Positions 7,919 through 59,765 of a stretch of 63,511 nucleotides of DNA are shown in pieces. The notes below the pieces were generated by a model. It worked only from the letters and a program-made list of their open reading frames with translations. It searched no databases and had not been told where the DNA came from. How positions within the stretch are numbered: position 1 is the stretch's first letter; every line of letters starts with the position of its first letter. The stretch spans positions 1 through 63,511 of the forward strand of contig CALWDJ010000011.1 of NCBI GenBank assembly GCA_944376655.1, read 5' to 3'. This DNA is from an uncultured Clostridia bacterium (GTDB lineage Bacteria; Bacillota; Clostridia; Oscillospirales; Acutalibacteraceae). A program made the translations under genes and the position numbers.

Positions 7919-8072
7919 AATACCGCTCCTTCCTTTCTTTATTGCATTATTATTATATTTCATACGCGCCATGATTTTGTTAAGAAAGAATAAATAAAAT
8001 TGATATATTTATTTACAGTGTTTACATTTATTCCCTTTTTCACTTTCTTATCTCCGAAAGGGGACGAAAACA

Positions 8073-8462
8073 ATGTATTACTGCAAGGAATGCGGTCGGG
8101 AATTCGAGTCCGCCGAAACAATTACCCAGACCCACGGACTTTTAAGTCCTCCGTTTGAGGAAATATATGTCTGCCCGTTCTGTTCAGGCACGGATATTTC
8201 CGCTGTTCAGTCGCTCCACTGCCGCTGCTGCGGAGCGAAACTGCCCGCCGGCGCCTCGTCCTACTGCGATGAAAACTGCCGCTCAAAGGGTGAGAAAATG
8301 CGGCGCAGGGAGGCTTCTCGCAGAAAAAGAGAGCGCAGTCTGCCGCTTAACATCATAATAAGGCAGCTTGAGGAGTACAACCGTATGAACGGAACCTCGT
8401 ACAGCTACGGTCAGTATGTGGCGCTGGTTCTCGTAAAAAGCAAAAGGGGCGGAAAAAGATGA
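8073..8462 (+). CDS. Phage-like zinc-ribbon protein
   Basis: A 129-aa protein with at least five Cys pairs: YCKECG, CPFCSG, CRCCGAKL, YCDENCR. It ends in a basic RREASRRKRERS stretch and a tail EYNRMNGTSYSYGQYVALV of the kind seen in small proteins of Clostridia prophages. AAAGGGG lies upstream of the ATG. The stop overlaps the next start (ATGA). The pair resembles the late-regulator end of a prophage early region, but no capsid, terminase or integrase is near, so this is either a relic or a domesticated pair. Confidence 0.65.
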   Translation: MYYCKECGREFESAETITQTHGLLSPPFEEIYVCPFCSGTDISAVQSLHCRCCGAKLPAGASSYCDENCRSKGEKMRRREASRRKRERSLPLNIIIRQLEEYNRMNGTSYSYGQYVALVLVKSKRGGKR

Positions 8463-8767
8463 ACGAAAAGAAAAAATATCTTTCTCTTTATATGCTCCAG
8501 CACGCGCGGATAGAACGCCTCGTCGGTATGCTTGAGACGGGCACCGGAAATCAGGCGGAATGTCTCGCCGGAATAAGAAAGGCAAACGAGCTGAGAAATG
8601 AAATCGAAAGGAAAATAAAGGAAGTTGACGGCGGGGTTTTAAGCGAGCTGCTCTATCTCAAATACGTATGCGGAAAGCCGCTGCTTGAAATCAGCTTTAT
8701 TCTCAATTACAGCGTCCGGCATACCGAAAGGCTGCACAAGAAGGCGCTTGAAAAACTGAAGCTCTGA
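8459..8767 (+). CDS. Phage-type sigma-70 region-4-like transcription regulator
   Basis: A 102-aa protein: a helical N-terminal half (RIERLVGMLETGTG, NELRNEIERKIKEV) and a C-terminal segment LYLKYVCGKPLLEISFILNYSVRHTERLHKKALEKL that reads as a sigma-70 region 4 helix-turn-helix, as in DUF1492/ArpU-like phage regulators. It overlaps the zinc-ribbon gene by 4 nt and ends 12 nt before the -35 box of the Crp/Fnr gene. A role in late phage transcription is family-based inference. Confidence 0.6.
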   Translation: MNEKKKYLSLYMLQHARIERLVGMLETGTGNQAECLAGIRKANELRNEIERKIKEVDGGVLSELLYLKYVCGKPLLEISFILNYSVRHTERLHKKALEKLKL

Positions 8768-8779
8768 TGCTCCGCGCAC

Positions 8780-8808
8780 TTGACAGGCTTTTTTAGCAGA
8801 GGTATAAT
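8780..8808 (+). promoter_or_regulatory. Perfect consensus SigA promoter of the Crp/Fnr gene
   Basis: TTGACA (8780-8785), 17-bp spacer, TATAAT (8803-8808). Its presence inside the longest open frame shows that the protein must start downstream, at the TTG at 8843. Confidence 0.92.
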
Positions 8809-8842
8809 AATATTACTTTCAGTGCGAAAGGCGGTTTTTAAA

Positions 8843-9508
8843 TTGAGCGGCAAGGAAAGCCTTTTAAAGAATCTGCCCTTCTTTGAGCATCTCTCTGATG
8901 ACGAAAAAAAGCAGGCGGACTCATATTCGTCGGTGAGGGAATATAAAAAAGGCAGCCTTATTCATTCGGGCGGCAGCGAATGCCTCGGAATGATAATGCT
9001 GATTTCCGGCGAAATACGTACATATATTTTATCCGAGGAAGGCAGGGAAATAACCCTTTTCCGTCTTTACCCGAAGGACACCTGCGTGCTTTCCGCCTCC
9101 TGCGTCATAAGCCAGATAACCTTTGACACGCATATGACCGCCGAGGCGGACTGCTCGGTGCTTGTGTTAAGCTCCGGATTTTTTTCCGCCCTCTGCGAAA
9201 AGAACATTTACGCGCGCTGCTATATGTACGAGCTGCTTACCGAACGCTTTTCGTCAGTTATGTGGACAATGCAGCAGATACTTTTCAAGGGCTTTGACCG
9301 CCGTCTCGCGGCGTTTTTGATATCGGAATACGAGCGCACGGGGCTTAAACAGATAAAAATGACCCACGAGCAGATAGCGCAGCACACAAGCTCGGCACGC
9401 GAGGTTGTGGCGCGTATGCTCAAGCGCTTTGCGGCGGACGGGCTTGTGGAGGTAAAGCGCGGCTTAATAACACTTAAAGACACGGACGCTTTAAAAAGAA
9501 TGATTTAG
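8843..9508 (+). CDS. Crp/Fnr family transcription regulator
   Basis: A 221-aa regulator with an N-terminal cyclic-nucleotide-binding-fold sensor (FFEHLSDDEKKQADSYSS, KKGSLIHSGG, LISGEIRTYIL) and a C-terminal winged helix-turn-helix HEQIAQHTSSAREVVARMLKRF. No N-terminal cluster of Fe-S cysteines is seen, although Cys residues occur in the sensor (near CLGM, TCVLSASCVI, DCSVLVL), so redox or thiol sensing is possible. The TTG start at 8843 follows AAAGGCGG and lies about 30 nt after the predicted transcript start. It sits directly before the thiol-redox operon and probably controls it. Confidence 0.9.
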   Translation: MSGKESLLKNLPFFEHLSDDEKKQADSYSSVREYKKGSLIHSGGSECLGMIMLISGEIRTYILSEEGREITLFRLYPKDTCVLSASCVISQITFDTHMTAEADCSVLVLSSGFFSALCEKNIYARCYMYELLTERFSSVMWTMQQILFKGFDRRLAAFLISEYERTGLKQIKMTHEQIAQHTSSAREVVARMLKRFAADGLVEVKRGLITLKDTDALKRMI

Positions 9509-9509
9509 A

Positions 9510-9544
9510 AATTACGCGGATTTTCACTCCGCGTAATTTTTTTT
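9510..9544 (+). terminator. Terminator of the Crp/Fnr gene
   Basis: Perfect stem aattacgcgga / tccgcgtaatt with a 7-nt loop, followed by T8. Confidence 0.93.
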
Positions 9545-9587
9545 CGAGAAATGAGACCCGGTCACGGTTCTGGCGCTTAAAAACAGG

Positions 9588-9593
9588 TAAAAT
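9588..9593 (+). promoter_or_regulatory. Possible activator-dependent -10 box of the redox operon
   Basis: TAAAAT lies 33 nt before the ccdA start but no -35 match is found 16-18 bp upstream (cggttc region). A lone -10 next to a Crp/Fnr gene suggests class II activation; this is inference. Confidence 0.4.
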
Positions 9594-9625
9594 ACATATG
9601 TAAACCGCCAAAGGAGGATAAAACC

Positions 9626-10279
9626 TTGCAGTATATCATAACATTTTTAGAGGGCGTAATATCTTTTATTTCTCCCTGTATGCTGCCCATGCTTCCGCTC
9701 TACATCTCATATTTCGCCGGCGGAGCCGATAAAAAGCACCGTACACTAATGCGCGCTGCGGCATTCGTGCTCGGTTTTACTGCTGTATTCACACTTCTCG
9801 GACTTTTCGCAGGAACGCTCGGCTCATTTCTGACAAAATACCATACAGCGGTCGGAATAGTCTGCGGAGCGGTCGTGATAGTTTTCGGGCTCAGCTATCT
9901 TGAGGTTATACGCCTGCCTTTTTTCAAAGGTATGTCAGGCGGGAAAAGCGTTACCGGAGTTGTTTCGGCGTTTTTATTCGGAGCGATATATTCGGTAAGC
10001 CTTACACCCTGCGTCGGAGCGTTTTTAGGCTCGGCGATAATGCTCGCCTCGGCTTCGGGAGAAGCGCTCAGGGGCACGCTGCTGCTGCTTGCCTATTCTT
10101 TGGGACTCGGCGTCCCGTTCCTTTTCTCTGCGGTGCTTATCGACCGGCTGTCATCCGTTTTCTCGGCGATAAAGAAGCATTACCGTGTTATAAACATTGT
10201 CTGCGGGATATTCCTTATAATCGTGGGCGTGCTTATGATGACAGGGCTTATGAATTCCCTGCTCGCACTTTTTTCCTGA
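9626..10279 (+). CDS. ccdA: CcdA-type transmembrane thiol-disulfide electron carrier
   Basis: A 217-aa, six-helix membrane protein of the CcdA/DsbD-beta family that moves reducing equivalents from cytosolic thioredoxin across the membrane. The two redox cysteines lie in FISPCMLPMLPLY (helix 1) and SLTPCVGAFLG (helix 4). TTG start with AAAGGAGG 8 nt upstream. It is first of a six-gene plus-strand operon whose next gene encodes the extracytoplasmic TlpA partner. Confidence 0.93.
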   Translation: MQYIITFLEGVISFISPCMLPMLPLYISYFAGGADKKHRTLMRAAAFVLGFTAVFTLLGLFAGTLGSFLTKYHTAVGIVCGAVVIVFGLSYLEVIRLPFFKGMSGGKSVTGVVSAFLFGAIYSVSLTPCVGAFLGSAIMLASASGEALRGTLLLLAYSLGLGVPFLFSAVLIDRLSSVFSAIKKHYRVINIVCGIFLIIVGVLMMTGLMNSLLALFS

Positions 10280-10288
10280 GGTGATTTT

Positions 10289-10843
10289 ATGAAAAAAAGC
10301 ACAAAATATATTATTATAGCGGCTGTTTTCGCCGCGGTAATGGCAGGCGCGGTTCTCGGCTACAATTTTCTTTCCGATAGGTTTTCGCCCGAAAGTAATT
10401 CGGACTCAACAGGCGGTTCCTCTGCAAAAGCCTACGACTTCACCGTGCTTGACCGGAACGGCAAAGAGGTAAAGCTCTCAGACTTTTTCGGAAAACCGGT
10501 TGTGGTAAACTTCTGGGCGACCTGGTGCGGCCCCTGCAAATCGGAGCTTCCGGCGTTTGACAGCGTATATGACGAGTTAGGCGATGAGGTTGAATTTCTT
10601 ATGGTCAACCTTACCGACGGCTTCAGGGAAACCGAACAAAGCGTAAAAGAATTCATTTCGGACGAGGGCTACAAGTTTCCGGTATACTTTGACACACAGT
10701 ACAGCGCCGCCTACGCTTACGGGGTGAGCGGCATTCCGATGTCGGTATTCATAAAAGCCGACGGCACCGTTTCGGACGCCCACGTGGGAGCTATGAGCGA
10801 GGAAGCGCTCAGAAATTACATTGACGGAATTACAGGAGGCTGA
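10289..10843 (+). CDS. TlpA/ResA-like membrane-anchored thioredoxin
   Basis: A 184-aa protein with an N-terminal signal anchor (about residues 6-24), a Ser-rich linker, and a redoxin domain holding [13 protein letters not shown] (active-site Cys80 and Cys83) and the cis-Pro region SGIPMSVFIK. It would reduce extracytoplasmic disulfides using electrons from CcdA. Nine bases separate it from ccdA. The substrate is unknown; there is no cytochrome c gene here, so a role in cytochrome maturation is unlikely. Confidence 0.9.
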   Translation: MKKSTKYIIIAAVFAAVMAGAVLGYNFLSDRFSPESNSDSTGGSSAKAYDFTVLDRNGKEVKLSDFFGKPVVVNFWATWCGPCKSELPAFDSVYDELGDEVEFLMVNLTDGFRETEQSVKEFISDEGYKFPVYFDTQYSAAYAYGVSGIPMSVFIKADGTVSDAHVGAMSEEALRNYIDGITGG

Positions 10844-10847
10844 AAAA

Positions 10848-11048
10848 ATGAAAATCACATATAATCCAGACAAAGAGGTTGTAAAAACCGTAAAGGAAGG
10901 TCTTGAGCGCACCGGCGGCTACTGCCCCTGCGTACTTGAAAGAAGCGAGGACACCAAATGTATGTGCAAGCAGTTCAGGGAGCAGATAAAGGACCCGGAT
11001 TTTGAGGGCTTCTGCCACTGTATGCTGTATTATAAATCAAAAGACTGA
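10848..11048 (+). CDS. Ferredoxin-thioredoxin reductase beta-like Fe-S protein
   Basis: A 66-aa protein with all six cysteines of the FTR catalytic subunit as three C-x-C pairs: CPC (26-28), CMC (38-40) and CHC (56-58). In plant and cyanobacterial FTR these hold a [4Fe-4S] cluster and the adjacent active-site disulfide that reduces thioredoxin with electrons from ferredoxin. The spacing differs from chloroplast FTR (short first gap, long second). GGAGG sits before the ATG at 10848. It lies immediately upstream of thioredoxin, its expected partner; no FTR alpha chain is seen. A 2[4Fe-4S] ferredoxin gene occurs 5 kb away. Confidence 0.82.
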
Positions 11049-11064
11049 AAAGGAGATAATAAAA

Positions 11065-11376
11065 ATGAACGAAGTAAGACTTACAAAAAACAATTTCCGC
11101 GATGAGGTACTGAATTCCGATATTCCCGTACTGGTGGATTTCTGGGCGACATGGTGCGGCCCCTGCCGTATGGTAGCGCCTATCGTTGAGGAAATAGCCG
11201 ACGAATACGACGGCAGGATAAAGGTCGGCAAGGTAAATGTGGACGAGGAGCCCGAGCTTGCTATGCAGTTCCGCGTGGCGAGCATACCGACCCTTATGGT
11301 ATTCAAGAACGGACAGCTTGTAAATACCGCGGTAGGCTACCGCCCGAAGGCCGACATACTCGCGCTGTTTGAATAA
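11065..11376 (+). CDS. trxA: Thioredoxin
   Basis: A 103-aa cytosolic thioredoxin with [12 protein letters not shown] (Cys31, Cys34), the buried Asp in VDFWA, and the cis-Pro loop [20 protein letters not shown] lies 8 nt before the ATG. Placed between the FTR-like protein, its probable reductant, and a rhodanese. No NADPH thioredoxin reductase is encoded in the operon. Confidence 0.95.
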
Positions 11377-11389
11377 GGACGGTTCGGTT

Positions 11390-11713
11390 ATGAGCTTATT
11401 CGGACTGCTTAAACGCCCCGATATAAACGCCGGCGTAGAGACCGCGCGCGCCGAAAAAGGAGCGGTTATACTTGATGTCCGGACCCGGCAGGAATATCGG
11501 CAGGAGAGAATCCCCGGAAGCATAAATATTCCGCTTGACGAGCTGGGTAAAATCAGCGAAAAAATCCCCGATAAATCCACGCCGGTTTTCGTGCACTGCT
11601 TAAGCGGCGCGAGAAGCAGTTCCGCCGCTAAAATATTGAAAAATGCGGGTTATACAAATGTGACCGACATAGGCGGGATTTCAAATTACAGAGGAAAAAC
11701 CGAAAGAGGATAA
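11390..11713 (+). CDS. Single-domain rhodanese
   Basis: A 107-aa rhodanese-fold protein with ILDVRTRQEY (CH2A-like) and the active-site loop VHCLSGARSS, whose Cys would carry a persulfide. It starts 13 nt after trxA and ends 3 nt before the CoA-disulfide reductase gene. A sulfur-transfer or persulfide-relay role with the neighbouring fused rhodanese is inferred. Confidence 0.9.
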   Translation: MSLFGLLKRPDINAGVETARAEKGAVILDVRTRQEYRQERIPGSINIPLDELGKISEKIPDKSTPVFVHCLSGARSSSAAKILKNAGYTNVTDIGGISNYRGKTERG

Positions 11714-11716
11714 AAT

Positions 11717-13405
11717 ATGAAGATCGTAATAGTAGGCGGCGTCGCGGGGGGAGCCTCCGCCGCCGCGAGAATAAGGCGGCTTGACGAAAGCGCGCAGATA
11801 ATAATGTTCGAGCGTTCGGGATTTGTCTCCTACGCCAACTGCGGACTGCCGTATTATATAGGCGGGGTCATAACCGACAGCGACGACCTGACCTTACAGA
11901 CCCCCGAGAGCTTCTGGGAGCGTTTCAGGATAGACGTCCGCGTCCGCCACGAGGTGACCGACATCGATACCGCCGCGAAAGCGGTGACGGTGCACGGTCT
12001 TGACACCGGAAAAATCTACACCGAAAGCTATGACAGGCTGATACTCTCTCCAGGGGCGAGACCGACCGCGCCGGATATGCCGGGACTTGACAGCGACAGG
12101 GTCTTCACCCTGCGCACGGTTGAGGATACGCTTAAAATCCGTTCCTTCATTGATGAGAAAAAGCCGTCTTCAGCCGTTGTGATAGGCGGCGGCTTTATTG
12201 GAATAGAGATGGCGGAAAACCTTTCGGCACAGGGCGCCGGGGTTACGCTTGTCGAGTACGCCGACCACATTTTGGCGCCCTTTGACGCCGATATGGCGGC
12301 ACAGCTCCACATTCTTATGGAAAAGCACGGCATAAGGCTGATGCTCCGCACAGCCGTTACCGGCTTTGAGAAAAACGGCGGCAGGGTGACCGTCAAAACC
12401 TCCTCGGGCGACATTACGGCGGATATGGCGCTGCTCGCGATAGGCGTTACCCCCGATACTTCCCTTGCCGAAAAAGCAGGACTGAAGCTCGGAATAAAGG
12501 GCGCTATCGAAGTAAATGAAAAAATGGAGACCTCCGCTCCTGACGTATATGCCGTAGGCGACGCTGTTGCAGTAAAGCATTTTGTAACAGGCGGCAGCAC
12601 ACTTATCTCGCTGGCTGGTCCGGCAAACAGGCAGGGACGCATAGCGGCGGACAATGTATGCGGCGGAAACAGCCTATACAAGGGCTCGCAGGGCTCATCG
12701 GTAATAAAGCTGTTTGATATAACCGCGGCGGCGACCGGAATAAATGAATCGGCGGCAAAGGCGGCGGGCATTGATTACGATTATGTAATACTCTCCCCCG
12801 CCTCTCACGCGACCTATTATCCGGGCGGAAAAGTAATGACCCTCAAGGTGCTTTTTGAAAACGGCACCGGAAGACTGCTCGGCGCGCAGGCGGTAGGCTA
12901 TGAGGGGGTTGACAAGCGCATTGACGTTATAGCCACGGCGATACGCGCCGGAATGAGCGCGCCGGAGCTTTGCGGGCTTGACCTCGCCTACGCCCCGCCC
13001 TATTCGTCGGCGAAGGACCCTGTCAATATGGCAGGCTTTATGATAGAAAACGTAATGACCGGAAAGGTAAAGCAGTTCGGCCTTGAAACCGAGCAATCGC
13101 TTCCGAGAGACGGCAGCGTAACACTGCTTGATACCCGCACACCCGGAGAATACTCGAGAGGCCACGCCGACGGCTTTGTGAATATTCCGGTGGACGATTT
13201 AAGGGAGCGGATCGGCGAAATACCGTCCGGCAAAAAGGTATATGTTATGTGTCAGAGCGGGCTTCGCAGCTATATCGCCTGCCGCATACTTTCGCAGAAC
13301 GGCTATGACTGCTGCAATTTCAGGGGCGGCTACCGTTTCTACGATATTGTAAAGCGGGGCGCCGCGCCGGCGCAGACCGCCTACCCCTGCGGAATGGAAA
13401 AGTAG
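11717..13405 (+). CDS. cdr: CoA-disulfide reductase / NADH oxidase-rhodanese fusion
   Basis: A 562-aa flavoprotein. Residues 1-440 form a pyridine-nucleotide disulfide oxidoreductase: FAD motif VIVGGVAGGASAAARIRRL, single redox cysteine in NCGLPYY (Cys42), NADH motif VIGGGFIGIEMAENL, and second FAD motif DVYAVGDAV. Residues about 460-550 are a rhodanese domain with active site YVMCQSGLRS. Such fusions reduce CoA disulfide or CoA-persulfide, linking NADH to low-molecular-weight thiols and sulfane sulfur. Last gene of the redox operon, followed by a 16-bp-stem hairpin. Confidence 0.93.
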   Translation: MKIVIVGGVAGGASAAARIRRLDESAQIIMFERSGFVSYANCGLPYYIGGVITDSDDLTLQTPESFWERFRIDVRVRHEVTDIDTAAKAVTVHGLDTGKIYTESYDRLILSPGARPTAPDMPGLDSDRVFTLRTVEDTLKIRSFIDEKKPSSAVVIGGGFIGIEMAENLSAQGAGVTLVEYADHILAPFDADMAAQLHILMEKHGIRLMLRTAVTGFEKNGGRVTVKTSSGDITADMALLAIGVTPDTSLAEKAGLKLGIKGAIEVNEKMETSAPDVYAVGDAVAVKHFVTGGSTLISLAGPANRQGRIAADNVCGGNSLYKGSQGSSVIKLFDITAAATGINESAAKAAGIDYDYVILSPASHATYYPGGKVMTLKVLFENGTGRLLGAQAVGYEGVDKRIDVIATAIRAGMSAPELCGLDLAYAPPYSSAKDPVNMAGFMIENVMTGKVKQFGLETEQSLPRDGSVTLLDTRTPGEYSRGHADGFVNIPVDDLRERIGEIPSGKKVYVMCQSGLRSYIACRILSQNGYDCCNFRGGYRFYDIVKRGAAPAQTAYPCGMEK

Positions 13406-13498
13406 AACCGACCGACCAGCAAATATATACAGGAAATACCCCAGCTTGAAAAAGCGTAATATCATTAAGCGAGAAATCAAAGCAACCGAATAGGACGA

Positions 13499-13544
13499 AC
13501 ACATCCCGCAGATTTATTTGAATCTGCGGGATGTGTAATTTTAT
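13499..13544. terminator. Terminator after the redox operon
   Basis: Perfect 16-bp stem acacatcccgcagatt / aatctgcgggatgtgt, loop of 6, followed on the plus strand by aattttat. It also lies between convergent genes and may serve both. Confidence 0.8.
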
Positions 13545-13558
13545 CTCATGTTTTTGTT

Positions 13559-15169
13559 TTAATCATCTATTACAAATACCATAGGCGGTGTTCCGTCTTT
13601 AGCATCGAAATCTTCAGATGCGATAGCTTTTTTCATAAACGCCATCGGTACTGCATAGCAGGAATACTGCCTGAATTCAGCAACTCTTCCAACAAGGTGC
13701 GCAGGAATTTCAATTTTTAATTGAGGAAAAATCTCCCGAAGCCAAGGCTCAAGTATATCCGCCATGAAATGCATATGCTCAATTCGTATTTTATCGAGAA
13801 TCCTGTATTCATCCGGTGTTATCACCGGAAGATTGACAAACGGTTTGCCATCTATACTGCCTAATATTCCACATTCGGTTAGATGCGGAATATCTTTACA
13901 ATACATCAAATTAAACCCCGTATTTTCAAACGGAATTCCTCTTGAAATGATATATAGAAGTTTGGCAAGTTCATCATCTTGCATTTCAATTGGTCCATGC
14001 TGATATTTGTTTAAGTCAGGTTGGGTGTCATAAATCTTCAGATCAATCGACTCGGCATTAAGAAAACCTTCAAAATACGCTCCCCGAAAGCCACCGTAAG
14101 AATATTTTGCACAACGATAACTTTCAAAATCAAAATTCTGTGGATACTGTAAACCCATAGCAATCCACCTGCCGCCGTCCGGACGCTGCGGATAGTTTTC
14201 TTTTGACGGAACAATTCGCTGCGTAGCTGTATAAATTGCCGACGAAAATAAATGCAGGATAAAATAATACTCCAGCTTTTTTCTTTTTCCTTCCGTAAGC
14301 TGCGAAAGGAAATTAGGAGTCCGCAATTTTCCAAGATATTCGTTTACGCTGCGCAAAATATCCGTGTAATGCGTTTCTACAAGCGCAATCTCCACATCTA
14401 AGCCTTTAAGACGCTGCTCCGGTTTTGTAATCATAAAGTCAGTAAAATATCTATTTCCAACCGCTTTCATTAATTCCGATGCAACCAGATCATGAACAGC
14501 ATTTTCTATGTATGCAGTAGGAATACCCAATGCTTTTGCAATTTCTACACATGTTACAGGCTTTTCATAAGCCACAATTAAAATATTTTGTTTAATTAAG
14601 TCGTTTGCTACAAGAGACCATGGCTCATCGTGAAATCCTTGGCAGCCATGACAGCTGATATCAAGCCTTTCCGGCTGATAACTTTGTTTTTCGTAAGACT
14701 CCATTTCATCAAACCCTTTCCGCATTTGTTCTCTGCCGCATGAAAGGCGGGAAAGCACTGTGCCTTTGGGTACACCGAGGCTGTCGGCAATGTCCTTAAC
14801 TTTTTCACCGTTCAGATAATGGCGTATGATGACTGTACGATACTTCTCTGCAAGATAGGCTACTTCTCTGCGAATTGATACAGCATTCGGTCTGTCGTCT
14901 GTTTCGTTTGTTTCCCACGGTTCAAATTCCTCCGGGACAAGATCAATACTGACAGTTGGCAACTTGTACTTTTTTCTAAGCATATCAAAATATTTATTGT
15001 TCAGCGCACTGCTAAGCCATAGTTTCATATCCATAATTTCTTTTGGATATTGCAGGGCAGCAAGCAGCACTTCCTGTGTCAAATCCTCGGCATCGTTAAG
15101 ATTTCCGCATTTCTTCAGTGCGATACGGAACAAATACTCCATATAATTTTGAATTTCTGAAGACTGCAT
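13559..15169 (-). CDS. ECF-like sigma factor with ~350-aa C-terminal extension
   Basis: A 536-aa protein. Residues 1-165 are a sigma-70 family core: region 2 (LFRIALKKCGNLNDAEDLTQEVLLAALQYP) and region 4 (EKYRTVIIRHYLNGEKVKDIADSLGVPKGTVLSR). ECF factors normally end here. The remaining ~350 residues begin with a CHGCQGFH cysteine pair and a winged-helix-like VTCVEIAKALGIPTAYIENAV, then a large alpha/beta part I do not recognise. It is probably a ligand- or redox-sensing module. GAGGTG precedes the ATG. The gene is visibly more AT-rich than its neighbours. No anti-sigma gene adjoins it. Confidence 0.8.
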   Translation of the reverse strand: MQSSEIQNYMEYLFRIALKKCGNLNDAEDLTQEVLLAALQYPKEIMDMKLWLSSALNNKYFDMLRKKYKLPTVSIDLVPEEFEPWETNETDDRPNAVSIRREVAYLAEKYRTVIIRHYLNGEKVKDIADSLGVPKGTVLSRLSCGREQMRKGFDEMESYEKQSYQPERLDISCHGCQGFHDEPWSLVANDLIKQNILIVAYEKPVTCVEIAKALGIPTAYIENAVHDLVASELMKAVGNRYFTDFMITKPEQRLKGLDVEIALVETHYTDILRSVNEYLGKLRTPNFLSQLTEGKRKKLEYYFILHLFSSAIYTATQRIVPSKENYPQRPDGGRWIAMGLQYPQNFDFESYRCAKYSYGGFRGAYFEGFLNAESIDLKIYDTQPDLNKYQHGPIEMQDDELAKLLYIISRGIPFENTGFNLMYCKDIPHLTECGILGSIDGKPFVNLPVITPDEYRILDKIRIEHMHFMADILEPWLREIFPQLKIEIPAHLVGRVAEFRQYSCYAVPMAFMKKAIASEDFDAKDGTPPMVFVIDD

Positions 15170-15519
15170 TTGTTCACCTCGTTTGAAAGCTTTCACCTAT
15201 AAGTCGCAGATTTTGGATTTGATTCGGTCAATTTTTAAAGTATGGCTGCAAATATATACGCAAGCTCTGTATTAAACCGCTTTTCGAGTTTAAGCCTTGT
15301 CGCATTAAAATATGCGTTCCAACTGCCCTAACAAAACGGTGTTCCGCTCTCTGAAAATGCGATATTTCCCCTAACAGCAGACTGCCTAAAAAGCAGCAAC
15401 CGGAAGGTATTCCGCCTTCCGGTTACATATCGTCCCCTTCTCTGTTAAGAACATCACGAAAAAATCCGGGGGATTTCTTTATATCCGATTGCTTACGCAA
15501 ACATCATTTAAGCCTGATG
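15170..15519. other. Intergenic region between the sigma factor gene and folT
   Basis: Holds a terminator at 15391-15424 (stem aaccggaagg / ccttccggtt, T5 on the minus strand) that fits the end of the folT transcript. No ORF, tRNA or clear promoter is seen; the sigma gene promoter could not be identified with confidence. Confidence 0.55.
15391..15424 (-). terminator. Terminator of folT
   Basis: Stem aaccggaagg / ccttccggtt, loop tattccg, followed on the minus strand by gctgcttttt. Confidence 0.7.
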
Positions 15520-57181: not shown

Positions 57182-58564
57182 TCATTTTTTGAACTCTTTT
57201 TTCATCTGTTTAATAAGCTCCGTAAGCTTTCCCTCGCACTCCTCACGTGTTTTTGCGTATACGTTCCGGCTTATTCGTTTTCCGTCTACCCGCGGCGAAT
57301 ATCTTCCTTCGTACAAATGCTCATTAAGCTTGGATATACACCCTGTTCCTGCTCTGCGTATTTTGGGCTTGTACGGCTCAAACGGCGGTTTTTCTGTTCT
57401 TTCCGGCTTACTTCCCGTACTTGGTATACGGGCGTCCGTACCGCCGATACTGCGGTCAATTTTTACTGCTGCCTGTTCTCTCATAGTGTCGGTTATATGG
57501 CTGTATACGTTAAGGGTTGTTTTTGCCGACATATGTCCTATCGCTGCCGAAAGGGTTTTTACGTCCATTCCGTATTCAATCGCCATTGTAGCGAATGTGT
57601 GCCGCAGATCGTGAAAGCGCACCCGCTTACAGCCAGCCCTGTCGAGTATTATCTGCAGTCTTTTTCTTACCGCCGACGGGTCACGGGTTTTACTGCTGTC
57701 TTTCGGCGACGGAAATATCCACTCGGAATTTACCGTTTCCTTATACTCCGAAAGAATGTTTAATAATGATTGCGGTAATATAACAGTCCTTATTGAAGAT
57801 TTTGTTTTAGGAACGGATATCACTCCTCCGCGCACCTGACGCTCAATTTTCAGCTCACCCGTTTTTAAATCAAGGTCGCTCCATTTAAGAGCAAGTATTT
57901 CTCCGCGCCTCATACCTGTCATCAATTCGAGCAGGAAGAGCTCATAGTATCCCTCTTCTTTAGCTTGGTACAGGAACCTCACTATCTCGTCGCTCTTTAA
58001 AATTTTCATTTCCTTTTGAGTATCTTTAGGAAGCTTTGTGCCGTCAGCTGGATTTATATTTATAAGTCCGTCATCTACCGCACGTTCAAGCGCCGACCGA
58101 CAGCTCTGGTGTATCATATGAACCGTTCTGTCGGATAAACCTTTTCCGTAAATCTCTGCCCGTATTTTTCTTCCGCTCTGTTTCTCGCGGTTGTAGAATT
58201 GCTGTAAGTCTGCGGTTTTCAGACTTTTTAACGGTATCCTGCCGACTGCGGGAATTATATGATTATATATACAGTTCTCCTGCTGTTCCTGCGTAGCTTT
58301 GCGAATTGTATTTTTACAGTATGTCCTGTACCAGAAATCTATCCATTCTCCGAAGGTTATATCCGCCGTAATTTTTTCGGTCGGTTTAATATATTGCTCC
58401 TTTAGTTGGCTGAGCTTTTCGGAGCATTCGGTTTTTGTTTTTGCGGTTACACTTTTTGTTACGGGATATTTATTTTCGTTATAACCTATAACGATTCTGC
58501 CTTCCCATCTGCCGTCCTTTCTGAGTCTTAATGTTCCATCACCGTTTTTTCTTCTCTTAGGCAT
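57182..58564 (-). CDS. Tyrosine recombinase/integrase 1, with terminal duplicated AP2-like domain
   Basis: A 460-aa tyrosine recombinase. N-terminal AP2-like arm-binding domain (about 1-55, GDGTLRLRKDGRWEGRIVIG), SAM-like core-binding domain (65-165) and catalytic domain with GMRRGEILALKW (Arg I), HDLRHTFA (His-x-x-Arg) and a GHMSAKTTLNVYSH box holding the last His and the Tyr. Beyond it, residues about 408-455 (CISKLNEHLYEGRYSPRVDG, then VYAKTREECEGKLTEL) repeat the AP2-like pattern. GGAGG lies 8 nt before the ATG, which overlaps the stop of integrase 2 by 8 nt. Confidence 0.9.
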   Translation of the reverse strand: MPKRRKNGDGTLRLRKDGRWEGRIVIGYNENKYPVTKSVTAKTKTECSEKLSQLKEQYIKPTEKITADITFGEWIDFWYRTYCKNTIRKATQEQQENCIYNHIIPAVGRIPLKSLKTADLQQFYNREKQSGRKIRAEIYGKGLSDRTVHMIHQSCRSALERAVDDGLININPADGTKLPKDTQKEMKILKSDEIVRFLYQAKEEGYYELFLLELMTGMRRGEILALKWSDLDLKTGELKIERQVRGGVISVPKTKSSIRTVILPQSLLNILSEYKETVNSEWIFPSPKDSSKTRDPSAVRKRLQIILDRAGCKRVRFHDLRHTFATMAIEYGMDVKTLSAAIGHMSAKTTLNVYSHITDTMREQAAVKIDRSIGGTDARIPSTGSKPERTEKPPFEPYKPKIRRAGTGCISKLNEHLYEGRYSPRVDGKRISRNVYAKTREECEGKLTELIKQMKKEFKK

Positions 58565-59765
58565 CTGTTCTGCCTCCGGTTATTTCATTCATCATATTAC
58601 CGATTATATCGGCGGCGTTTCGCTGCATATCCTTTGTGACGTGAGTATAAGTGTCAAGTGTGAAGCTGGCGTTTGTGTGACCGAGAATTCCCGACAGTGT
58701 TTTCGCGTCTACTCCTCCCGCAAGTGCGTGTGTCGCGAAGGTGTGACGAAGATCGTGAAAGCGTACCGACGGAAGTCCTGCTTGTTTTAACAGAGTCTTA
58801 AGACGTCCGTATGCTATGTAAGGTGCAATCGGTTTTTCAGGCTCGTAAAAATTCGGGAATATCCAGTCGCCGTATGAGCTTTGCTTTCTTGCTTTAAGCA
58901 GTTCTGCGGTACTCGGCGGAAGTATTATCGTCCGTGTTCCGGTTTCGGTTTTGGTTTCTCCCGTGCCAAGGCCGCCGCCTTTCTGTACTGTTACGGTTCG
59001 CCTGATTTTAAGGCTTCCGCTCTGTTCATCAAAATCCTCCCACTTAAGTCCGCAGATTTCACCGCGCCTCAGTCCCGTGGTAAGCTCGGTATAGAAGAAA
59101 TCATACCACAGCTCATCTTCTTTTATAACGCTCATAAACTTATCCAGCTGTTCATCGTTAAGCACCTGCTTGGGAGCGTAATTGGTTTTAGGTATTACCG
59201 TGCGGTAAGTAGGATTTTTTACAATGATTCTATCCCTTACCGCCGCGTCCAGAGCTTCGTGCAGCAGCATATGTATGCCGCGCACTACGCTGTCCGAAAG
59301 CTGTGTGCCGTGTTTCTTATCCGGTCTTACTCTGCCTTTTTCCTTTACGGTGTTATAAAATTTCTGAATATCCTGCGTGGTAATTGATGACAGCGGCTTA
59401 TCTCCGAGATACGGTTTTATCTGATTTTTAATTAAACCTTTGTAACTGTCAAGTGTGCTTTCTCTTACCGTTAAGGACATATAATCTTTAATCCACCTGT
59501 CCAGCCACTCTCCGAGAGTCATACTGCTTTCTTCAGTCAAATCCGAATTTTTGTGGGTTTCAATAAGAGCGTGGAGTTTTTGAGTCAGCTCCTTTTGAGT
59601 TTTGGCGAGCACAGAACGGTAGATAGGCTTGCCGTTATTCTTATGTCCTGCAACAATTCTGCCCTCCCATCTGCCGTCTGTACGCTTTCGTATCATACCG
59701 TCTCCGTTCGGTCTGCGTTTTGCCGTATTACCACTTCCTTTCTTCAGCACAATACAATACCACAT
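58557..59765 (-). CDS. Tyrosine recombinase/integrase 2
   Basis: A 402-aa tyrosine recombinase. AP2-like domain (NGDGMIRKRTDGRWEGRIVAG), core-binding domain and catalytic domain with GLRRGEICGLKW, HDLRHTFATHAL, and GHTNASFTLDTYTHV (His and Tyr). All catalytic residues are present, so both recombinases may be active. The start is uncertain: an ATG at 59765, a GTG five codons later, and AAAGGAAG further in. It overlaps integrase 1 by 8 nt, so both are made from one message. Confidence 0.88.
   Translation of the reverse strand: MWYCIVLKKGSGNTAKRRPNGDGMIRKRTDGRWEGRIVAGHKNNGKPIYRSVLAKTQKELTQKLHALIETHKNSDLTEESSMTLGEWLDRWIKDYMSLTVRESTLDSYKGLIKNQIKPYLGDKPLSSITTQDIQKFYNTVKEKGRVRPDKKHGTQLSDSVVRGIHMLLHEALDAAVRDRIIVKNPTYRTVIPKTNYAPKQVLNDEQLDKFMSVIKEDELWYDFFYTELTTGLRRGEICGLKWEDFDEQSGSLKIRRTVTVQKGGGLGTGETKTETGTRTIILPPSTAELLKARKQSSYGDWIFPNFYEPEKPIAPYIAYGRLKTLLKQAGLPSVRFHDLRHTFATHALAGGVDAKTLSGILGHTNASFTLDTYTHVTKDMQRNAADIIGNMMNEITGGRTDA

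What the first reader, a model, noticed from the sequence alone, without database searches (positions are those of the whole stretch)
8843..13405. A Crp/Fnr-linked thiol-redox operon joining ferredoxin, thioredoxin and CoA persulfide chemistry
The operon combines CcdA, TlpA, an FTR-beta-like protein, thioredoxin, a rhodanese and a CoA-disulfide reductase-rhodanese. It suggests a route ferredoxin -> FTR-like -> thioredoxin -> CcdA -> TlpA outside the cell, coupled to sulfane-sulfur handling inside. No NADPH thioredoxin reductase is present. The combination is the most system-like set in the window.
Basis: partly seen in the sequence, partly recalled or inferred. Interest (0 to 1): 0.75.

Follow-up and report, generated by a model that had tools for sequence, protein, structure and literature searches.

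The report
Ferredoxin-type thioredoxin reductase operon
A Clostridia genome in which no ordinary NADPH thioredoxin reductase was found carries a tiny protein of the iron-sulfur reductase kind next to its thioredoxin, and in related genomes this protein is more frequent where the ordinary enzyme is missing, so it probably does that job using ferredoxin instead.

Summary
In detail: a Crp/Fnr gene is followed by a tight six-gene run, ccdA-tlpA-FTR-like-trx-rhodanese-CoADR/rhodanese. The key part is a 66-aa protein that passes Pfam's FTR catalytic-chain model; six cysteines and the active-site His align with Synechocystis FTRC, but the middle CxC is shifted by seven residues. No FTR alpha chain and no TrxB above cut-off were found in the genome; PF00085 finds only the operon's Trx and TlpA. 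In 297 genomes of the order the FTR-like gene is in 28 of 45 lacking a TrxB-like hit and in 61 of 252 having one; the excess survives family-stratified permutation and recurs in the own family. Trx lies within about 1 kb in 62 of 87 loci. Crp, CcdA-TlpA and CoADR recur there in 3-6 loci from two or three families; other window ORFs do not. Two related loci place a ferredoxin gene directly behind it. Best reading: ferredoxin -> FTR-like -> Trx, feeding CcdA/TlpA and sulfur/oxygen defence. The core rests on genomics alone; the branches are inferred; the complete operon was seen only here and in a sister species. New variant of a known kind.

The parts
8780..8808 (+). sigma-70-like promoter TTGACA-17-TATAAT ahead of crp
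   Evidence: 12 of 12 consensus positions; consensus match only
8843..9508 (+). Crp/Fnr-family regulator; three cysteines invariant in 9 aligned regulators from FTR-like loci (this one and its sister included)
   Evidence: Pfam; alignment A3, C47, C81, C87
9509..9545 (+). hairpin + U run between crp and ccdA (terminator or attenuator)
   Evidence: fold of 9501-9550 -18.1 kcal/mol, arms kept and loop changed in sister L019
9626..10279 (+). CcdA (DsbD_TM), cysteines in ISPCMLPML and LTPCVGAF
   Evidence: PF02683 73 bits; sequence
10289..10843 (+). TlpA/ResA-like thioredoxin-fold protein with N-terminal hydrophobic stretch, WCGPC
   Evidence: NF002854 ResA 124.9 bits, under its cut-off of 170; sequence
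10848..11048 (+). FTR-like protein, 66 aa, CPC-x9-CMC-x15-CHC
   Evidence: PF02943 over gathering; hhalign with a Synechocystis FTRC segment; AF2 pLDDT 94.7
11065..11376 (+). thioredoxin, WCGPC; the only PF00085 hit in the genome besides TlpA
   Evidence: TIGR01068 131.6 bits
11390..11713 (+). single-domain rhodanese, loop Cys in HCLSGARS
   Evidence: PF00581 63.5 bits; ORF from 11369, first ATG 11390
11717..13405 (+). CoA-disulfide/CoA-persulfide reductase-rhodanese fusion; Cys in ANCGLPYY and CQSGLRS
   Evidence: closest PDB chains 3icr, 3nta, 4ocg; 8a56 (CoA-persulfide reductase) sixth
13499..13536 (+). terminator-like hairpin after the operon
   Evidence: 17-bp stem

Best explanation
The 66-aa protein is a stand-alone ferredoxin:thioredoxin reductase of the FTRC/FDR type, a short subfamily with a shifted middle CxC. 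It takes electrons one at a time from reduced ferredoxin through a cysteine-bound [4Fe-4S] cluster and reduces the thioredoxin encoded next to it. In this genome it is the only reductase I could find for the only thioredoxin I could find, standing in for NADPH-dependent TrxB. In this operon reduced Trx would pass electrons through CcdA to TlpA outside the membrane and would reduce (per)sulfides from the rhodanese, while CoADR-rhodanese reduces CoA persulfide/disulfide with NAD(P)H. The Crp/Fnr protein would switch the set on under oxygen or reactive sulfur. SHOWN: gene content and order, family membership by profile, no TrxB or FTR alpha found, association with absence of TrxB, recurrent neighbours. 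INFERRED: cluster, electron donor, Trx as substrate, direction of flow, membrane and sulfur branches, regulation.
For: Profile: PF02943 above E 0.001 in 38 of 38 scanned members and over gathering for this protein; hhalign A2 against a Synechocystis FTRC segment 91.5% probability, E 8.6e-7, six Cys and the CHC His aligned. Spacing 9/15 in 93 of 93 loci, 91 distinct sequences (found with patterns around the first and last motif), and in 86 of 87 loci of the even draw. Genome: no TrxB-like hit at E<=1e-40, none over cut-off, one Trx besides TlpA. Order, 297 genomes: FTR+ 28 of 89 lack a TIGR01292 hit at E<=1e-40, FTR- 17 of 208 (Fisher 1.6e-6); permuting within families, 28 observed against 15.0-17.8 expected, 0 of 20000 reach it under each of four placements of the 9 genomes whose family was not listed. 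Own family, 297 genomes: FTR+ 29 of 76, FTR- 21 of 221 (p 6.8e-8, no correction for relatedness; shares genomes with the order sample). Remaining TrxB-like sequences carry the NADPH motif HRRxxxR in 14 of 30 from FTR+ genomes and 18 of 20 from FTR- genomes (chosen sets). Neighbours in the even draw: Trx in 62 of 87 loci; a dicluster ferredoxin gene starting 13 nt after the FTR-like gene in L110 and L119, and behind FTR-trx in L124; Crp in 6, CoADR in 4, CcdA+TlpA in 3 of 87 loci, while the other 58 of 62 window ORFs have 0 or 1 locus on the same strand.
Against: No experiment. Foldseek finds no FTR chain for the AF2 model, weak evidence for a 66-residue protein. Plant-type spacing is not kept and no alpha chain was found. 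61 of 89 FTR+ genomes of the order and 47 of 76 of the family keep a TrxB-like protein; 17 and 21 genomes lack both. In 25 of 87 loci no Trx lies near (some are cut by contig ends, and L183, counted as having Trx, is ambiguous because the same ORF also matches a DUF134/NifX query). L110 and L119 are from one family, with other genes between FTR and Trx. The recurrent partners come from few families: Crp from three (f13, f14, f16), CoADR from two (f14 three times, f21), CcdA-TlpA from two (f16, f20). Two weak hits counted as FTR+ in the order table (G051, G111) lack the cysteine motif.
Confidence: 0.65

Rival explanations
1. The FTR-like protein is a ferredoxin:disulfide reductase with another main client (a glutaredoxin-like protein, class III ribonucleotide reductase, or a persulfide), and Trx is only an auxiliary neighbour.
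For: In Methanosarcina FDR reduces an atypical Trx, not canonical ones (PMC6262447, passages; delivery to class III RNR seen only as a title in its reference list). 25 of 87 loci have no Trx near.
Against: Trx is by far the commonest neighbour cluster (69 of 92 loci within about 6 kb; 62 of 87); absence of TrxB goes with the FTR-like gene.
Confidence: 0.17
2. The protein is mainly an oxygen/ROS or sulfur stress protein (an Fe-S sensor, or a rescue reductase for stress enzymes) in a Crp-controlled regulon, and housekeeping Trx reduction runs through an unrecognised enzyme.
For: Rubrerythrin in 5 and superoxide reductase-like proteins in 3 of 87 loci within about 4.5 kb, Crp in 6; 17 genomes of the order sample have neither TrxB-like nor FTR-like hits, so another route may exist somewhere.
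Against: Three conserved CxC motifs with His as in FTRC; pairing with Trx; association with TrxB absence. Not exclusive with the best reading.
Confidence: 0.13
3. The run is a chance assembly of common thiol genes without shared function.
For: Among the loci inspected the complete set is in two sister genomes only.
Against: Gaps of 3-16 nt; CcdA-TlpA-FTR-trx also in L015, L047, L087, L112, L125, L141; Crp + FTR + trx + CoADR in L110, L119, L176; 58 other ORFs of the window do not recur.
Confidence: 0.05

Closest known systems
Plant/cyanobacterial ferredoxin:thioredoxin reductase (FTRC+FTRV; PDB 1dj7, 2pu9, 7bzk)
   Same: six cysteines in three CxC motifs, CHC with the active-site His, the stretch before the first CPC aligned
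   Different: 66 aa, middle CxC shifted by 7 residues with the total span kept, no variable chain found
Ferredoxin:disulfide reductase (FDR) of Methanosarcina and bacterial FTRC homologues
   Same: stand-alone FTRC-type proteins outside oxygenic phototrophs; [quoted passage not shown]
   Different: M. acetivorans FDR carries a rubredoxin centre (recalled); the present group is 66 aa and mostly found with Trx; its sequence was not compared with FDR here
[quoted passage not shown]
   Same: same proposed reaction, ferredoxin to Trx, in Clostridia (PMC10880999, passages)
   Different: a TrxB-type flavoprotein; the 66-aa protein matches only FTR models
CcdA-ResA/TlpA thiol relay
   Same: CcdA with one Cys in each half, TlpA with a hydrophobic N-terminus
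   Different: electron source would be ferredoxin, not NADPH; ResB and MsrA clients not found
CoADR-rhodanese / CoA-persulfide reductase (3icr, 3nta, 8a56)
   Same: nearly full-length match including the rhodanese
   Different: linked to FTR-like and Trx genes; under the TIGR03385 equivalog cut-off (513.6 of 578.8)

Membership tests
FTRC/FDR superfamily (PF02943) | score over Pfam gathering | tested here: met
   27.6 of 22 bits; 38 of 38 relatives match at E<=0.001
FTRC/FDR superfamily (PF02943) | three CxC motifs with His in the last | tested here: met
FTRC/FDR superfamily (PF02943) | FTRC fold | tested here: inconclusive
   confident AF2 model but no Foldseek match with E<=0.001
FTRC/FDR superfamily (PF02943) | active-site [4Fe-4S] cluster and ferredoxin-dependent disulfide reduction | not testable with these tools
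   needs protein
plant-type heterodimeric FTR | CPC-x16-CPC-x8-CHC spacing | tested here: not met
   x9 and x15
plant-type heterodimeric FTR | variable (alpha) chain PF02941 | tested here: not met
   0 hits at E<=0.001 in own genome; control rang in Synechococcus
NADPH thioredoxin reductase (TrxB/NTR) | TIGR01292 cut-off in this genome | tested here: not met
   75.6 of 343.45 bits
CcdA | DsbD_TM domain with one Cys in each half | tested here: met
   PF02683 73 bits; Cys in ISPCM and LTPCV
CoA-disulfide reductase (equivalog TIGR03385) | equivalog cut-off | tested here: not met
   513.6 of 578.8; nearest PDB chains are CoADR-rhodanese-length proteins
Crp/Fnr family | cNMP-binding and HTH_Crp domains | tested here: met
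   ligand and targets not testable

The most novel reading that the evidence does not exclude
A distinct, minimal FTR family with a shifted Fe-S motif has repeatedly replaced NADPH thioredoxin reductase across many families of gut-type Clostridia, so that their thioredoxin, and here also the thiols outside the membrane, run on ferredoxin instead of NADPH.
Probability: 0.55. Interest if true: 0.75.

Novelty: new variant of a known kind. Interest (0 to 1): 0.62.

Why it matters
The 2024 survey of thioredoxin systems that I looked into (PMC10880999; abstract, passages, sections 6 and 16) searched for reductases by BLASTP with TrxB sequences, which would not find an FTR-type reductase; no word beginning with 'FTR' occurs in its main text. 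If the reading holds, a number of uncultured Clostridia do not need NADPH to keep Trx reduced, thiol homeostasis there is tied directly to the ferredoxin pool of fermentation, and the question of how TrxB-less anaerobes reduce thioredoxin becomes testable with a 66-residue protein. The shifted CxC would also give a minimal natural variant for the FTR mechanism.

Tried and rejected
Fusions: 13 long FTR-containing frames or stretches were translated. Most looked like chance upstream open frames; L052 and L057 run on from a preceding protein and are noted below; none was a fusion to Trx or ferredoxin. TrxB candidates in the own genome: L003 is a gltA-type protein; L002 passes no model and by eye lacks the TrxB CxxC; of the other three hits one is the operon's CoADR and two are flavoproteins read by eye only. 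Rfam: no hit in 8000-14000. First small test in 40 relatives: by my reading, 5 of 13 FTR+ and 6 of 27 FTR- genomes lacked a strong TrxB-like hit (no test run); PF02943 is not sensitive enough there: G011, negative, is positive with A2. Trx counted by regex gave 59 downstream and 2 upstream of 92 (29 none, 2 without room), by clustering 69 of 92; the regex missed Trx proteins. In one search two of 89 fetched loci (L190, L191, weak hits) had no cysteine motif and were dropped, leaving 87 loci (86 genomes; G320 gives two). In the control the ORFs are greedy and some are surely not genes; the operon's Trx, rhodanese and FTR-like genes are not in the set (length limit or displaced by a longer antisense ORF); one other ORF reaches 2 loci if both strands are counted. 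The TrxB motif test used 30 sequences from FTR+ genomes, to my count those whose positions were listed (29, one), while most FTR+ genomes with a TrxB-like hit had none listed, and 20 chosen FTR- sequences (10 over, 10 under the cut-off) of more than 100 listed; its p of 0.0023 ignores relatedness. L204 was read on the wrong strand and mended.
Full report
OBSERVATION. The seven genes are there. Crp/Fnr (8843-9508) has a perfect promoter-like match ahead of it and is separated from the rest by a hairpin with a U run; the sister genome (L019, whose contig has the length of G023:C22, 39958) keeps the hairpin arms and changes the loop. From 9626 to 13405 six genes follow with gaps of 9, 4, 16, 13 and 3 nt, and a terminator-like hairpin lies behind them. 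CcdA keeps a Cys in each half, TlpA and Trx have WCGPC, both rhodanese domains have the loop Cys, CoADR has its NCGLPY Cys (sequence; roles of these residues recalled).

THE CENTRAL PROTEIN. The 66-aa protein matches Pfam FeThRed_B at 27.6 bits (cut-off 22) and NCBIfam FtrB_double_U at 26.7 bits, under that model's cut-off of 160. All 38 members of alignment A2 match PF02943 at E<=0.001. Solved plant and cyanobacterial FTRC chains read CPC-x16-CPC-x8-CHC; this family reads CPC-x9-CxC-x15-CHC in 93 of 93 loci (91 distinct sequences) and in 86 of 87 loci of the even draw, the exception being L189 with 9/14. The sum is the same, so the middle pair moves by seven residues while the outer motifs keep their distance. 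hhalign places all six cysteines and the His together by a 7-residue deletion followed by a 7-residue insertion, besides a 5-residue gap before the first CPC (91.5%, E 8.6e-7). AF2 gives a confident model (pLDDT 94.7) that Foldseek does not match to any PDB chain at E<=0.001, so the fold is not confirmed. An alpha chain was not found; PMC9025218 states that the variable subunit is exclusive to oxygenic phototrophs while FTRC is found in a variety of bacteria (passage).

WHAT IT REPLACES. The genome (1.99 Mb, 96% complete) has no TrxB over cut-off, and PF00085 finds only the operon's Trx and TlpA. In an even draw of 297 genomes of the order (300 asked for, completeness 90 or more), A2 hits 89 (E<=0.001, two of them weak and without the motif) and TIGR01292 at E<=1e-40 hits 252. 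Cross-table: FTR+ 61 with and 28 without a TrxB-like hit; FTR- 191 with and 17 without. With labels permuted inside families the expectation is 15.0-17.8 and none of 20000 permutations reaches 28, for four placements of the nine genomes whose family was not listed. FTR+/TrxB- genomes occur in 11 families. In the own family (297 genomes, partly the same ones) the table is 47, 29, 200, 21 (no correction for relatedness). TrxB-like proteins that remain in FTR+ genomes carry the NADPH motif HRRxxxR in 14 of 30 and a QNLxxLTG variant in 12 of 30, against 18 and 0 of 20 from FTR- genomes (chosen sets). Against a simple swap: 61 of 89 FTR+ genomes keep a TrxB-like protein, and 17 genomes have neither.

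COMPANY. Among the 87 loci from the even draw, Trx lies within about 1.1 kb on the same strand in 62, Crp (>150 bits, same strand, within about 5 kb) in 6, CoADR-rhodanese in 4, CcdA with TlpA in 3. These come from few families: Crp f13, f14, f16; CoADR f14 (three loci) and f21; CcdA-TlpA f16 and f20. As a control, 62 greedy window ORFs of >=100 aa were run against the same loci (>=100 bits, same strand): the four operon proteins in that set score 6, 4, 3 and 3 loci, the other 58 score 0 or 1. L110 and L119 (one family) read crp - rubrerythrin - superoxide reductase-like - small membrane protein - FTR-like - dicluster ferredoxin - Fe-S membrane protein (by eye; no NCBIfam match) - Trx - CoADR-rhodanese (rubrerythrin is over its cut-off, desulfoferrodoxin and ferredoxin scores are under theirs). 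L124 has FTR-like - Trx - ferredoxin (NF058577 over cut-off). L111 has superoxide reductase-like - FTR-like - rubrerythrin. L176 has crp - Trx - a long CoADR fusion - FTR-like. L141 has crp - ccdA - tlpA - FTR-like - Trx; L015 (same genus) has a superoxide reductase-like frame cut by the locus end - ccdA - tlpA - FTR-like - Trx. Nine regulators from such loci, two of them sisters, share three invariant cysteines, which suits a redox or Fe-S sensor but proves none.

MECHANISM. Shown by sequence: parts, order, no alternative found. Inferred from FTR biochemistry (recalled): ferredoxin gives electrons singly to a [4Fe-4S] cluster next to a disulfide, which reduces Trx. Inferred from CcdA biology (recalled): Trx -> CcdA -> TlpA. 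The usual clients, ResB (cytochrome c) and MsrA, were not found, so the outer client is unknown. Inferred for sulfur: the fusion is closest to CoADR-rhodanese structures, with a CoA-persulfide reductase among the best six; these use NAD(P)H (recalled); Trx may clear persulfide from the rhodanese.

LITERATURE. Searches listed no paper that, by title and start of abstract, treats an FTR-type reductase paired with Trx in Clostridia; searches returned nothing, lists 20, 60 and 82 were cut (20 of 42, 12 of 44, 15 of 18,854), and the library lacks most subscription papers. PMC10880999 (abstract, passages, sections 6 and 16) surveyed 349 bacteria and 67 Firmicutes with TrxB queries and reports NTR and non-NTR, probably FFTR, enzymes. 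PMC6262447, PMC7278568 and PMC5627308 (passages) describe FDR/FTR and atypical TrxB; PMC13188914 (one passage) lists a selenoprotein FTR family, NF041072. Prakash 2018 and Balsera 2013 were seen only as references; that FDR homologues are widespread in Bacteria is recalled from the former. So bacterial FTRC homologues are known; the shifted-motif family as a likely Trx reductase of TrxB-less Clostridia, and its operons, I did not find in these searches.

VERDICT. New variant of a known kind.

Noticed in passing
L192, L195, L198-L200, L202-L205, L208, L210, L211: TrxB-like proteins in FTR+ genomes with QNLxxLTG in place of the NADPH motif HRRxxxR; GGGN(S/T)A is kept in the 11 of 12 that were read on the right strand. 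Possibly another non-NADPH TrxB type.
   Followed up: partly
L110 and L119, about 2.7 kb up- to 2.8 kb downstream of the FTR-like gene: Crp-led cluster with rubrerythrin, superoxide reductase-like protein, ferredoxin, Fe-S membrane protein, Trx and CoADR-rhodanese around the FTR-like gene.
   Followed up: partly
L176, directly upstream of the FTR-like gene: 820-aa CoADR-rhodanese with further C-terminal parts that look like TusA and DsrE (by eye).
   Followed up: no
L052 6987-8204 and L057 6582-8195: The FTR-like sequence continues in frame from a preceding protein (methyltransferase-like in L052, where no Met stands at the usual start; glycosyltransferase-like in L057; both by eye): fusions or sequencing faults.
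   Followed up: no
window 13559-15196 (-): 545-aa protein that begins like a sigma-70 factor and has a long C-terminal part, convergent with the operon; a relative lies in one FTR-like locus on the other strand (L152 by eye).
   Followed up: no
L189 (G055): FTR-like protein with spacing 9/14, a more divergent branch.
   Followed up: no
G320; G373, G421, G473, G565: Two or three FTR-like copies in one genome.
   Followed up: no
G321:C6 234190-237148: TrxB-like gene (L198, QNL type) about 2 kb from the FTR-like gene on the same contig and strand.
   Followed up: no
window 57182-59765 (-): Two tandem similar proteins of 460 and 402 aa with NGDGxxRxRxDGRWEGRIV near the start, probably phage-type integrases (by eye).
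   Followed up: no
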